The notes under the pieces were generated by a model that saw nothing but the letters and a program-made list of their open reading frames with translations, did no database searches and was not told the origin of the DNA. Below are positions 1,103 through 5,309 of a stretch of DNA of 5,742 bases, piece after piece (position 1 is the first letter of the stretch; each line of letters begins with the position of its first letter). The position numbers were made by a program, and so were the translations under genes. The stretch is from Bdellovibrionales bacterium (GTDB lineage: Bacteria; Bdellovibrionota; Bdellovibrionia; Bdellovibrionales; UBA1609), in NCBI GenBank assembly GCA_020435085.1, contig JAGRAB010000302.1:1-5742 (forward strand), written 5' to 3'.

Positions 1103-1810
1103 TTAGTAATTCTGTAAATCAAATGGATTCAAGATTTTATGGATATGCTTTTTCAAAAATGACTTAAATCGCTCTAATTGCTCATGCGCATGATTAAGAC
1201 TTTTTAGTCCCAACTTAGCCTCACCAATTGAAAAAATTTGGCAATCTGATTTGCGGCCAATCATGAGGTCTAACTCTCCCGCAACTTTATCTGAATATGC
1301 AACTGAGCCTGTCACATAAAATTCATCAGAAAGTTTCTTCGAAGTTTCTACTATTGATAAAATTTCTAAAACTTCACCTTCTGAATGGAAGTTAAAATCC
1401 ATTTCCTGGTAAAGATCCATCATGATTTGAAAGTCCCTCAAAGCTTCTGGATTTGATTTTAATCGCCACATTGCTGACTCAATATCGCCTCTTTCTACAA
1501 CCATTCTTCCTAAATCCCAAAGTAAACGAGCATCGTCACGTCGGATGGGATACTCATATGTAAATCCACGGTTTTGAGCCCCAATAGGTCCGTAAGTGAA
1601 TGTCTCAAGATCATAAGTGGCAAAGTTATCTAACTCTACTTCTCGGCACTTTTCTGGAATTGTGTGATCGTCACGAAGGCTTCTAAAATAACTGCCTCCG
1701 TAACCAGCAAATGTCACTTCAGATAATAATAAAAATGGAAATAATGCCACGAATGTGAATGCATTTATAGCTTTCAAGGTCCCCCCCGGGTATGAGTGCG
1801 GTTGACACAC
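1103..1810 (-). CDS. Exported protein with a PD-(D/E)XK nuclease-like core
   Basis: I do not recognise the family. Counted from the GTG at 1810 (235 aa), a hydrophobic segment at residues 14-29 ends in 'SEVTFA-GYGG', a plausible signal-peptidase I site after residue 35, so export to the periplasm is likely. The C-terminal third has the spacing of a PD-(D/E)XK nuclease core: 'GELDLMIG' (Asp181), a strand 'CQIFSIGEAK' (Glu197-x-Lys199), then a helix with 'EQLERFKSFL'. This motif set is also found in non-nuclease relatives. The start is unsettled. The GTG has no Shine-Dalgarno site, whereas an in-frame TTG at 1777 follows a G7 tract and gives a compact signal peptide starting MKAINAF (224 aa); I slightly favour the TTG. 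A weak promoter (TTGAAA 1830-1835, TAGTGT 1807-1812) would start RNA near 1800, which also suits the TTG. bolA follows after 17 nt. Confidence 0.72.
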   Translation of the reverse strand: MCQPHSYPGGTLKAINAFTFVALFPFLLLSEVTFAGYGGSYFRSLRDDHTIPEKCREVELDNFATYDLETFTYGPIGAQNRGFTYEYPIRRDDARLLWDLGRMVVERGDIESAMWRLKSNPEALRDFQIMMDLYQEMDFNFHSEGEVLEILSIVETSKKLSDEFYVTGSVAYSDKVAGELDLMIGRKSDCQIFSIGEAKLGLKSLNHAHEQLERFKSFLKKHIHKILNPFDLQNY

Positions 1811-3714: not shown

Positions 3715-4164
3715 CTAAGCTCTATTGTGTACTAATGACTTTTCTCCATCTTTAAAAGTCACCATAATAGAAAGACCATTGGAGTCAGTAACAACTCCTA
3801 TTCCAAACTTGGGATGTTCAATAGCTGTATCCGCCGAAAACTTCTTTTTCATATTATAGGTTTCTACTTTATCCATATTGATATTGGCCTTTTTTTCCAT
3901 CCAAACTTCTTCTGTAGACTGTGTTTTTTTACGAGACACACCTTTTTTTCCAGTTGCTTTTTTCTTAGCTACCCCTACTTTAAAAGTCTGCTTCCCTTTA
4001 CAAACTTCACACTCGAGCTTGGCACTTGTCGCTGTTGGATGCGTGAGAACTTTATGATATCGATCCACTCCACATTTTTTACAATGATAATAAAAATTAG
4101 AAGCTACCGCTGGAAGCGTATTCATATTTACAGAGCTTGTTGCAGCTTGAGTCGTCTCCGACAT
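3715..4164 (-). CDS. Zinc-ribbon protein with basic linker and Tudor-like C-terminal domain
   Basis: No named family is recognised. The 149 residues split into three parts. A zinc ribbon has Cys28-x2-Cys31 and Cys52-x2-Cys55, with 'CGVDRYHKVLTHPTATSAKLECEVC'. A strongly basic linker (about 66-80, KKKATGKKGVSRKK) follows. The C-terminal module (about 109-148) reads 'IEHPKFGIGVVTD...IMVTFKDGEKSLVHNR', resembling the small SH3/Tudor-like barrel at the end of PcrA/UvrD helicases and in transcription-coupling factors. A nucleic-acid- or RNA-polymerase-associated role is the natural inference, not shown. The ATG has GGGG 6 nt upstream (4171-4174). A 32-bp dyad and a candidate extended -10 lie directly before it, so this gene probably heads the transcript with the EEP hydrolase and the permease. 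I have an impression of similar proteins in Bdellovibrio-type genomes but cannot confirm it here. Confidence 0.82.
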   Translation of the reverse strand: MSETTQAATSSVNMNTLPAVASNFYYHCKKCGVDRYHKVLTHPTATSAKLECEVCKGKQTFKVGVAKKKATGKKGVSRKKTQSTEEVWMEKKANINMDKVETYNMKKKFSADTAIEHPKFGIGVVTDSNGLSIMVTFKDGEKSLVHNRA

Positions 4165-4173
4165 AAAAATCCC

Positions 4174-4205
4174 CTTTGATTGAATATGTTCTTATTCTAT
4201 CAAAG
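4174..4205 (-). promoter_or_regulatory. 32-bp dyad overlapping a candidate extended -10 promoter
   Basis: CTTTGAT (4174-4180) pairs with ATCAAAG (4199-4205), then one mismatch, then GAATA (4182-4186) pairs with TATTC (4193-4197), around a 6-nt centre. On the minus strand, TGATAGAAT in the first half is a good extended -10 (TAGAAT at 4194-4199); no good -35 accompanies it. The symmetry over the -10 suggests a repressor operator. Alternatively the transcript could fold here, with the stem touching the GGGG ribosome site at 4171-4174. The dyad is certain; its role is inferred. Confidence 0.45.
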
Positions 4206-4242
4206 ACTTTTTCAGCTGGGCAGTAATTAATCATACCCATTC

Positions 4243-4271
4243 CAAAAAATAATTGTCTCAGGTTCATAAGT
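4243..4271 (+). repeat. Left arm, 29-bp perfect inverted repeat
   Basis: It runs C, A6, TAATTGTCTCAGG, TTCATAAGT and is the exact reverse complement of 4402-4430. Pairing continues outward with three mismatches to 4229. Confidence 0.9.
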
Positions 4272-4401
4272 CACCAAGGAGGTTTGTCATTCTGGTTGCA
4301 AACCAAAACCTAGTCGACGCGGTAGTGAAATTAAGAAGGATATAGCTTCTAACGCCTCGTGCAAGATGGCTATAAATACAAAATCTTCGTACTCGTTGTT
4401 T

Positions 4402-4430
4402 ACTTATGAACCTGAGACAATTATTTTTTG
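4402..4430 (-). repeat. Right arm, 29-bp perfect inverted repeat
   Basis: Exact reverse complement of 4243-4271, ending in a T6 tract (4424-4429) on the plus strand. Its imperfect outward extension runs to 4444 and overlaps the TAA stop (4440-4442) of the upstream gene. Confidence 0.9.
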
Positions 4431-4439
4431 AAATTGGTA

Positions 4440-5309
4440 TTATTTCTCAACGAAGACATCTAACGGTGCGTCTAAAGCCTGCTTACGAATTTGGTTAGAA
4501 TCTAAAAAAAAGGGGCCTTGTTTCATTTCTATTTTCAATTGAAAAGCTTTTAAGGAGAGCTCATCACTGGGATTCACTTGAAATCCCGCTTTTTTATATT
4601 TTACCGAAAAGTCCATGGATGGCTCTTGACTAAAAAATCTCTCCCACTCTTTTGGATCTGTTCGCAACCGATATGTCAGAGTCTGGCTATACGAATGAAC
4701 AGGGGTATAAGCTGTAAGAACTTCAAAATCACCATAATGTGTGTGTAGGCGTGCTGCTGGCGACCGCCACTGTGTCATTCCACAGCAAATTTCAATATTC
4801 GCATACCAAAGCCCAAAGGCTTTGGTTAAAAAACCAAGACCATAAAACCTTTGTTCTTTTGGCAACAGTGAGTTCGCTGAACAAAGGTTATGCGCCACCC
4901 ACTCTCCATCTCCCATTGTGGGAATAATAATAAATAATGAGAGCGGGATCCACTCAGCCTCTTGTGTTGTGCGAGTCAGGCGTTTTAGGTCTTCACTTGC
5001 AGCATCTTTATGAATCGCATATCCAGCCACAAACCCTGGCATAATGGCACAGTCAAAAAATACCCAACGAGGCATGGCCATATTGCTTGTTGAAAATGCT
5101 TTTTCTTCTAATGAGAGAATCTGGTCTGCAAACTCCACATTACTCATAAGTAATGGATTTCGATAAATCGGTTTTCTATTGAACCAATTGATATCAAATT
5201 TTGTACCTGGGTCTTTTATGCGATTTTCTTCTCTGACAAAAACATAGGGACGAATATTGTCGCTAAAAAACCAATTGAGTTTTTGATATTGCTTGAGAGA
5301 GGCCTCCAT
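4440..5309 (-). CDS. Conserved-looking 289-aa protein with GNAT-like features
   Basis: I do not recognise a named family. The second half has the order of elements seen in GCN5-related acyltransferases. First comes a strand pair 'RWVFFDCAIMPGFVAGYAIHK' (81-101), then a hydrophobic strand 'WIPLSLFIIIP' (120-130). An R-x-x-G-x-G acetyl-CoA-loop motif follows (Arg154, Gly157, Gly159) with a helix 'LTKAFGLWYA', then a strand 'IEICCGM' and 'SPAARLHTHYGDFEVL' (183-198), which resembles the usual NxxAxxLYxxxGF segment. The roughly 25 residues between the strand and the R-x-x-G-x-G motif are unusual for GNATs, so the assignment is tentative. It has no signal peptide or membrane helix and is probably cytosolic. 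The ATG lies 12 nt after the LOG-family stop, with only a weak GAGA-type ribosome site, suggesting co-transcription. Its TAA lies inside the right arm of the inverted-repeat element, so the original C-terminus may have been altered by insertion. Confidence 0.75.
   Translation of the reverse strand: MEASLKQYQKLNWFFSDNIRPYVFVREENRIKDPGTKFDINWFNRKPIYRNPLLMSNVEFADQILSLEEKAFSTSNMAMPRWVFFDCAIMPGFVAGYAIHKDAASEDLKRLTRTTQEAEWIPLSLFIIIPTMGDGEWVAHNLCSANSLLPKEQRFYGLGFLTKAFGLWYANIEICCGMTQWRSPAARLHTHYGDFEVLTAYTPVHSYSQTLTYRLRTDPKEWERFFSQEPSMDFSVKYKKAGFQVNPSDELSLKAFQLKIEMKQGPFFLDSNQIRKQALDAPLDVFVEK

What the first reader, a model, noticed from the sequence alone, without database searches (positions are those of the whole stretch)
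4229..4444. Large MITE-like element with 29-bp perfect, 43-bp near-perfect inverted arms
The arms are far longer and cleaner than chance or a normal terminator allows, and they enclose a 130-nt non-coding centre with its own small hairpins. Symmetrical TA dinucleotides at the outer ends suggest a non-autonomous element moved by an IS630/Tc1-mariner-type transposase. It could instead be a long structured RNA in the leader of the zinc-ribbon operon. The right arm contains the stop codon of the upstream gene, so insertion may have reshaped that protein's C-terminus and separated two former operon neighbours.
Basis: partly seen in the sequence, partly recalled or inferred. Interest (0 to 1): 0.75.

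Follow-up and report, generated by a model that had tools for sequence, protein, structure and literature searches.

The report
Hairpin mobile element at gene ends
A 206-base hairpin-shaped stretch of DNA between two neighbouring bacterial genes is one of at least nine copies of a tiny mobile element in this genome; it was likely moved by a larger relative's enzyme, and it sits exactly at one gene's stop signal, where that gene's protein is as long as in close relatives without the element.

Summary
In detail: arms of 53 nt (89% complementary, 29 perfect), far beyond chance. It is a miniature inverted-repeat transposable element (MITE): nine near-full copies (the other eight 83-88% identical, both orientations) plus ten fragments or single ends in this incomplete genome. 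The full element was not found in 57 relatives, but its ~21-bp ends, TACCAATTCCANNAAATAATT, bound other short palindromes (81-181 bp) in five further genomes of the order and an IS-like repeat in a sixth. One insertion of that IS-like repeat splits a gene; frame and a paralogous repeat point to a 3-bp TAA duplication. The MITEs' own duplications are only weakly visible, and no transposase was found. In the window the upstream gene's stop codon is the boundary triplet; its protein ends within the range of 28 orthologues, so reshaping is not supported. The insertion widened an intergenic gap to 275 bp (at most 76 bp in 18 relatives). Elements recurrently abut gene stop codons, often an in-frame TAA. 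Arms covary between copies, best read as arm-to-arm correction; the centre shows no special fold. A new member of a known kind, with an interesting target bias.

The parts
4234..4439 (.). MITE proper, TACC...GGTA, 206 bp, AT-rich inverted termini, no gene inside
   Evidence: 9 near-full copies in own genome; alignments A1, A2; ends placed from the element rows and the insertion
4229..4281 (.). left inverted arm (perfect part 4243-4271)
   Evidence: shuffle control
4392..4444 (.). right inverted arm (perfect part 4402-4430)
   Evidence: shuffle control
4234..4254 (+). left terminal inverted repeat, order-wide motif TACCAATTCCANNAAATAATT (1 mismatch here)
4419..4439 (-). right terminal inverted repeat, same motif (1 mismatch)
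4231..4233 (.). left flanking triplet TCA (TGA in gene orientation), predicted decayed copy of the 3-bp target duplication
4440..4442 (-). right flanking triplet = TAA stop codon of the 289-aa gene; predicted other copy of the target duplication
4282..4391 (.). 110-nt centre, conserved among copies (mean pairwise identity 87% over alignment columns 54-165) but without special fold
4440..5309 (-). upstream gene, 289 aa, found in 31 of 47 genomes of the family, no Pfam or NCBIfam match
3715..4164 (-). downstream gene, 149 aa, CxxC-containing (zinc-ribbon-like by sequence, no Pfam match), same-strand neighbour in 22 of 29 other loci

Best explanation
The 206-bp sequence at 4234-4439 is one of nine near-full copies, in both orientations, of a miniature inverted-repeat element in this genome, and it was likely moved in trans by the transposase of a larger insertion sequence with the same ends that likely targets TWA (TAA/TTA) and duplicates those 3 bp. 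Shown: copy number, shared ends across the order, and TAA on both sides of one insertion of a same-ended IS-like repeat in another genome. Inferred: that the transposase is an IS5/PIF-Harbinger-type DDE enzyme and that it also moved this element. In the window the element lies at the stop codon of the 289-aa gene. Because a TAA stop is itself a TWA target, duplicating it would leave the gene's reading frame and stop intact, so such insertions would be close to harmless and be kept (inferred). The consequence shown is a gap between two usually adjacent same-strand genes widened to 275 bp. A read-through transcript would be predicted to carry a hairpin of some 40 base pairs, a possible RNase III substrate as proposed for Correia/NEMIS elements (untested). 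The arms stay matched despite divergence, most likely because one arm is copied from the other (hairpin-templated correction, inferred).
For: Own genome: 9 near-full copies, the other 8 at 83-88% identity to the window, in both orientations. Arm motif: 23 hits with up to 3 mismatches, against 0 for the reversed-pattern control. Full-length BLASTN: match in 1 of 58 genomes, the own one, but arms recur: 10 of 147 genomes and 9 of 368 phylum genomes, own genome included in both; two or more hits only within the order. Paired short palindromes lie in G014, G020, G037, G065 and G108. G105 has 9 contigs that stop 82-97 bp inside an IS-like repeat with two distinct inner ends. Target duplication: contigs C90 and C42 of G105 read as two halves of one gene; joined with 3 bp (TAA) removed they give TPGSVVIKVTD, the same length as the protein's own paralogous repeat TPGTVTIRVTD, whereas removing 2, 4 or 5 bp does not match and breaks the frame, and a TA-duplication model gives a stop. 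Synteny: 22 of 29 other loci have the downstream gene on the same strand, and 18 measurable gaps run from -35 to 76 bp against 275 bp here. Protein end: query-equivalent end 289 here and in 9 of 28 orthologues with a visible stop, including same-genus G002. Gene-end placement: 8 of 19 own-genome sites have a gene's stop at -3 to 0 bp of the boundary and 0 of 19 lie inside an ORF of 90 aa or more; 9 of 17 boundaries reached by a 100-codon open frame use the boundary TAA as stop. Of 9 neighbouring proteins, 6 match a family to within 2 positions of its end.
Against: No transposase was found: 0 PF13358 and 0 PF01609 matches in the own genome (61.85% complete, 421 contigs), and no place among 18 PF01609 places in G014, G065, G105 and G108 has a convincing pair of these ends. 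MITE flanks show the duplication only weakly: 10 of 23 elements have identical flanking triplets (permutation mean 7.7, p 0.17); middle base 14 of 23 (mean 9.8, p 0.049). The window's own triplets differ (TCA/TTA). A 0-bp duplication would also keep the G105 gene in frame, one residue longer, and no true empty site was found. Stop-codon bias: p 0.012 against a chance of 1/4, but 0.075 against 1/3; 3 of the 17 boundaries are of the G105 IS-like repeat; purifying selection on insertions could produce the pattern. One neighbouring protein (uridine kinase) ends 18 positions short of its profile and 2 of 9 match no family. Copies are 82-94% identical to each other, so no recent movement is shown here.
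Confidence: 0.72

Rival explanations
1. A MITE moved by an IS630/Tc1-mariner transposase with a TA target duplication, element CC...GG flanked by TA.
For: TA stands at both outer ends of the window element; TA at the termini is usual in bacterial MITEs such as Correia and RUP (PMC2229807, passages); flanking triplets of MITE copies often differ between sides.
Against: The C90/C42 insertion in G105 gets a stop in frame under a TA duplication. Of 24 DDE_3 places in 140 genomes of the order none has a pair of these ends (up to 5 mismatches each, within 1.5 kb where the contig allows) enclosing the domain match; L133 has a 3- and a 5-mismatch match 220 bp apart that do not enclose it. In the six own-genome copies with both ends tabulated, 6 of 12 ends no longer have TA next to CC. 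The own genome has no DDE_3 match, though it is incomplete.
Confidence: 0.15
2. A structured RNA or attenuator kept for function in the operon leader, spread by duplication.
For: Arms covary between copies: 9 of 36 arm pairs changed on both sides, 0 of 500 shuffles as many, and slid controls give 0-1 (the tool warns that relatedness can inflate this); strong fold, z -9.17.
Against: Copies sit beside unrelated genes, and the gap at the orthologous locus in 18 measured relatives is too short to hold one. The centre folds no better than shuffles and shows no covariation. In the window copy a 1-nt insertion and some substitutions are mirrored in both arms, as expected of one arm templating the other. 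No relevant Rfam family.
Confidence: 0.07
3. A REPIN/BIME-type repeat dispersed by a single-strand (Y1) RAYT transposase through its hairpin, without target duplication.
For: Hairpin shape of the paired elements in each genome; weak target duplication in the MITEs.
Against: Long terminal inverted repeats shared with an IS-like repeat whose insertion left TAA on both sides; bounded elements of 81-206 bp rather than short REP units (REP size recalled). RAYT genes were not searched for.
Confidence: 0.05

Closest known systems
Tourist-like MITEs / PIF-Harbinger superfamily (eukaryotes)
   Same: Short elements with terminal inverted repeats moved in trans by PIF/Harbinger transposases (PMC2836001, abstract start in the listing); TWA 3-bp target duplication of PIF/Harbinger (PMC4482050, passages)
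   Different: Bacterial host; transposase not seen here; no second protein (ORF1) shown; MITE duplications mostly not visible
IS5 family, IS1031 group (3-bp TNA duplication, recalled) and ISL2 group
   Same: 3-bp AT-rich target duplication; the bacterial family grouped with PIF-Harbinger (PMC4482050 and PMC12730594, passages)
   Different: PMC4482050 gives ANT for bacterial IS5; no convincing pair of these ends at 18 PF01609 places; the transposase of the same-ended IS-like repeat is unread
Correia/NEMIS and RUP elements
   Same: Bacterial MITEs of about 107 and 155 bp (Correia) and 107 bp (RUP) with TA at the termini and stem-loop transcripts; RNase III processing proposed for NEMIS (PMC2229807, passages)
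   Different: Different end sequence; RUP is linked to IS630-Spn1 with TA targets, here the one readable insertion shows TAA
REPINs
   Same: Small mobile hairpin repeats in bacteria (PMC3116915, search listing only)
   Different: Different size and ends (recalled); no RAYT link tested

Membership tests
MITE (bacterial) | Multi-copy, a few hundred bp at most, no transposase gene inside | tested here: met
   9 near-full copies of about 200 bp, own genome; no ORF of 50 aa or more lies wholly inside 4234-4439 (a 56-aa ORF, 4097-4267 minus, starts in the left arm)
MITE (bacterial) | Terminal inverted repeats | tested here: met
MITE (bacterial) | Ends shared with a full-length autonomous element | tested here: inconclusive
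   Ends shared with an IS-like repeat in G105 at 9 contig ends; its interior was on no contig found
MITE (bacterial) | Absent from orthologous loci of relatives | tested here: met
   Gap 275 bp here, -35 to 76 bp in 18 measurable orthologues of 29 other loci; no full-element match in 57 other genomes
IS630/Tc1-mariner derived | TA target duplication | tested here: not met
   A TA duplication gives an in-frame stop at the one readable insertion of the same-ended repeat, G105 C90/C42; not testable directly on the window copy
IS630/Tc1-mariner derived | Matching ends on an IS630 element | tested here: not met
   0 of 24 DDE_3 places in 140 genomes of the order have such a pair around the domain; own genome 0 matches
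IS5 / PIF-Harbinger derived | 3-bp TWA/TNA target duplication | tested here: inconclusive
   TAA at one IS-like insertion, a 0-bp alternative not wholly excluded; MITE copies 10 of 23 identical triplets, p 0.17
IS5 / PIF-Harbinger derived | IS5/Harbinger-type DDE transposase between the ends | tested here: inconclusive
   PF01609 searched in 7 genomes: 18 places, no convincing pair of these ends; PF13359, PF13586 and PF13340 not searched
Structured RNA family | Conserved fold of the centre with compensatory changes | tested here: not met
REPIN | RAYT transposase and REP units | not tested
   no search made

The most novel reading that the evidence does not exclude
An order-wide bacterial counterpart of Tourist MITEs: hairpin elements with a nearly fixed 21-bp end but mostly genome-specific interiors, whose TWA target makes the ochre stop codon a safe harbour. 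The duplicated TAA regenerates the stop, so the element can settle at the 3' ends of housekeeping genes (hflX, uridine kinase, and inside the last codons of ligA) and put a long hairpin into their transcripts.
Probability: 0.35. Interest if true: 0.58.

Novelty: new member of a known kind. Interest (0 to 1): 0.42.

Why it matters
If the TWA/ochre link holds, it gives a simple rule for why a transposon can accumulate in compact genomes at gene ends without damage, and it would tie a bacterial MITE family to the IS5/PIF-Harbinger mechanism rather than to IS630, the family linked to RUP. It also warns that covariation between the arms of a multi-copy palindrome is not by itself evidence of a functional RNA. 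A search of the held library for 'miniature inverted-repeat transposable' with 'Bdellovibrio' gave 0 papers; the host order is unnamed in the data, and that genus was only my guess.

Tried and rejected
Rejected: IS630 origin (frame and ends); reshaped C-terminus; structured centre; known Rfam RNA (only a sub-threshold viral snoRNA match, outside the element); intrinsic terminator at the element (the single terminator-like site in 4100-4600 lies at 4568-4588); plasmid carriage (no match in the plasmid collection; the phage and E. coli collections were not searched). A simple reading in which every MITE copy has a clean 3-bp duplication failed (10 of 23). Two G020 elements share one right flank with different left flanks, so some contigs are probably chimeric at the repeat and flanking triplets of MAG copies are not fully reliable; both rows stayed in the 23.

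Led nowhere: exact 21-mer of the arm in genome contigs, 3 hits in unrelated records, and in viral contigs 1 and 8 hits, none with a partner arm at MITE spacing. Inverted ends of the 42 transposase loci, three best shown per locus, did not match. An orthologue of the split G105 gene in its genus: 1 of 6 genomes, only G105 itself, so no true empty site. Text search for the end sequence in papers gave only unrelated titles among the 20 listed of 40. Searches for literature on stop-codon targeting by MITEs or IS5 gave no relevant title in the listings.

Full report
The observation. The window holds inverted arms at 4229-4281 and 4392-4444, 53 nt and 89% complementary, with a 29-nt perfect part; 200 dinucleotide shuffles of the window never gave more than 15. 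The RNA fold of the whole is far below shuffles (z -9.17), but the centre alone is ordinary on both strands (z -0.31 and 0.29).

It is a repeat. BLASTN with the 216-bp unit found nine near-full copies (the other eight at 83-88% identity; one, C409, cut by a contig end) in both orientations, and further arms. A 23-bp arm pattern with up to 3 mismatches hit 23 times against 0 for the reversed control. I examined 19 sites in this genome, nine near-full and ten fragments or single ends. Pairwise identities of the nine copies are 82-94%, so the family is not young. Contigs C205, C409, C40, C257, C323 and C56 begin or end in or near such a sequence.

The ends are shared across an order, the interiors mostly not. 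The full unit matched none of 57 other genomes. The arm pattern matched 10 of 147 genomes with up to 3 mismatches (G000 23, G020 13, G105 9, G065 8, G108 3, G014 2, and single hits in G012, G061, G096, G146) and 9 of 368 phylum genomes with up to 1 mismatch (G000 19, G065 17, G020 15, G105 9, G108 6, G037 2, single hits in G061, G216, G244). Paired arms define short palindromes of about 81 bp (G108), 100 (G014), 139-141 (G065), 160 (G037) and 151-181 (G020) against 206 here. Solo arms and internally deleted copies also occur (C125, C57, G037 contig 1). In G105 nine contigs stop 82-97 bp inside a repeat with these ends; four carry one inner end and five another, as an IS of about five copies would. 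Its interior was on no contig found. One inner end has a short open frame ending in a stop (AWNVFCDQDGAIKNLCSRSWAQI*), perhaps a transposase C-terminus.

Target duplication. In G105, contig C90 ends in a gene reading ...GTPGSVV, and contig C42 continues with IKVTDELGST...; the same protein has a paralogous stretch TPGTVTIRVTD, and a search of G105 aligned the C42 fragment to C90 at 41%. Removing a 3-bp TAA overlap gives a product of exactly the paralogue's length; removing 2, 4 or 5 bp gives no match and a broken frame; removing 0 keeps the frame with one extra residue; a TA-duplication model puts a stop right after the junction. So the duplication is most likely TAA, 3 bp, element TACC...GGTA. 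The other G105 ends are compatible: left ends TAA, TTA, TAA, TAA; right ends, read outward, TTA, TAA, TAA, TAA, TTA. Among MITEs the signal is weak: of 31 element rows (a few double-counted, decayed or chance) I kept 23 with both arms within 3 mismatches; 20 of 23 left and 21 of 23 right triplets are TNA, but only 10 of 23 are identical on both sides (p 0.17; middle base p 0.049). Age and chimeric contigs may explain this, but I cannot show it.

Known parallels. PIF/Harbinger elements have TWA duplications and are grouped with bacterial IS5 (PMC4482050 and PMC12730594, passages read). That IS1031-group IS5 elements duplicate TNA is recalled. Correia/NEMIS and RUP are bacterial MITEs with TA at the termini; NEMIS RNA is proposed to be cut by RNase III, and RUP is linked to IS630-Spn1 (PMC2229807, passages). 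I searched IS630-type DDE_3 in 140 genomes of the order (24 places in 16 genomes) and DDE_Tnp_1 in 7 TIR-bearing genomes (18 places in 4 genomes): no place has a convincing pair of these ends around the domain. The transposase class is therefore an inference from one duplication.

The locus. The 289-aa gene was matched in 31 of 47 genomes of the family; 30 loci were read, 29 of them not the window's. In 22 of 29 the 149-aa gene follows on the same strand; in 18 the gap could be measured, -35 to 76 bp, against 275 bp here. The G002 orthologue ends DAPLDVFIPK, the window's DAPLDVFVEK. Of 28 orthologues with a visible stop, 9 end at the residue equivalent to the window's, 1 ends one residue earlier and 18 end 1 to 8 residues later, same-genus G001 4 later; the window's end is within the natural range, though loss of a few residues cannot be excluded. 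After the element, in gene orientation, the window reads TGATTAATT, and G002 reads TGATTAAG directly after its last codon. This would suit insertion at the stop codon with a triplet on both sides (TAA at the gene, TGA beyond), but intergenic DNA is otherwise diverged and this may be chance.

Gene ends as landing sites. At 8 of 19 own-genome sites a gene's stop lies within -3 to 0 bp of the element boundary, and no ORF of 90 aa or more spans any of the 19. Over 88 boundaries from several genomes (some of them chance hits), 17 are reached by a 100-codon open frame; in 9 of 17 the boundary TAA is the in-frame stop, in 1 the frame is the same but the triplet is not a stop, in 2 and 5 the other two frames apply (3 of the 17 belong to the G105 IS-like repeat). 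Binomial p is 0.012 for a chance of 1/4 and 0.075 for 1/3. Nine neighbouring proteins were scanned: 6 of 9 match a family to within 2 positions of its end (HflX, a nucleoside phosphorylase-like enzyme, a glycosyltransferase, NamZ, LigA, a heptosyltransferase), uridine kinase stops 18 positions short of its profile, and 2 match none. In ligA and the heptosyltransferase gene the frame runs 22 and 30 bp into the element. Selection against damaging insertions would give much of this pattern; a TWA target adds that an in-frame TAA stop can be duplicated without loss.

Arms and transcription. Between the nine copies 9 of 36 arm pairs changed on both sides with pairing kept, 0 of 500 shuffles as many, while 25 predicted centre pairs show nothing beyond shuffles. 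The window copy has a 1-nt insertion in both arms and mirrored substitutions, beside a few unmatched ones. Correction of one arm from the other through a hairpin explains this; selection for an RNA helix is not excluded. A consensus scan of 4100-4600 found 4 promoter-like sites (shuffle mean 1.2, sd 1.1), three of them at the element's ends; two lie on the minus strand, and the one at 4259-4230 points towards the downstream gene. These are 9-of-12 matches and no evidence of function, but an outward promoter is possible.

Verdict. A MITE, well supported; TWA-type transposition, moderately supported; functional RNA, weakly supported. Novelty lies in the family and in the possible ochre-stop harbour.

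Noticed in passing
L107 (G105 contig C27) 2024-2089: A decayed copy of the IS-like left end (85% over 66 bp) whose sequence then departs, with synonymous-looking differences in the short terminal open frame.
   Followed up: partly
L091 and L093 (G020 contigs C280, C350): Two elements with the same right flank and different left flanks, probably a chimeric join of contigs at the repeat.
   Followed up: partly
L115 (G014) and L108 (G020 contig C134): Elements in two genera share interior sequence by eye (GTTG.TGCGCT.TCG.GGTATT...ATACAGCTT), unlike the otherwise genome-specific interiors; inheritance or transfer.
   Followed up: no
L060 (own contig C362) around 9856-9950: An element fragment flanked by a separate inverted repeat of about 30 nt (GCCAGCTCCTCAATGGTAGCAAT... 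and its complement on the two sides).
   Followed up: no
L066 (own contig C134) 914-960 and L179 (own contig C56) 1-84: Two single ends in the own genome whose inner sequence differs from the MITE; C134 continues CCCTAGATTTCAAG, close to the G105 IS-like end CCCTAAATTTGAG, perhaps an IS remnant.
   Followed up: partly
L058 (own contig C309) near 2503: The ligA frame runs 22 bp into the element, so the last residues of DNA ligase are predicted to come from the mobile element.
   Followed up: partly
window 4230-4259 (minus), 4414-4443 (plus), 4423-4450 (minus): Promoter-like 9-of-12 matches at the element's ends; the first points towards the downstream gene.
   Followed up: no
window 1103-1810, minus strand: 235-aa ORF without Pfam match, GTG start, next to a BolA gene.
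   Followed up: no
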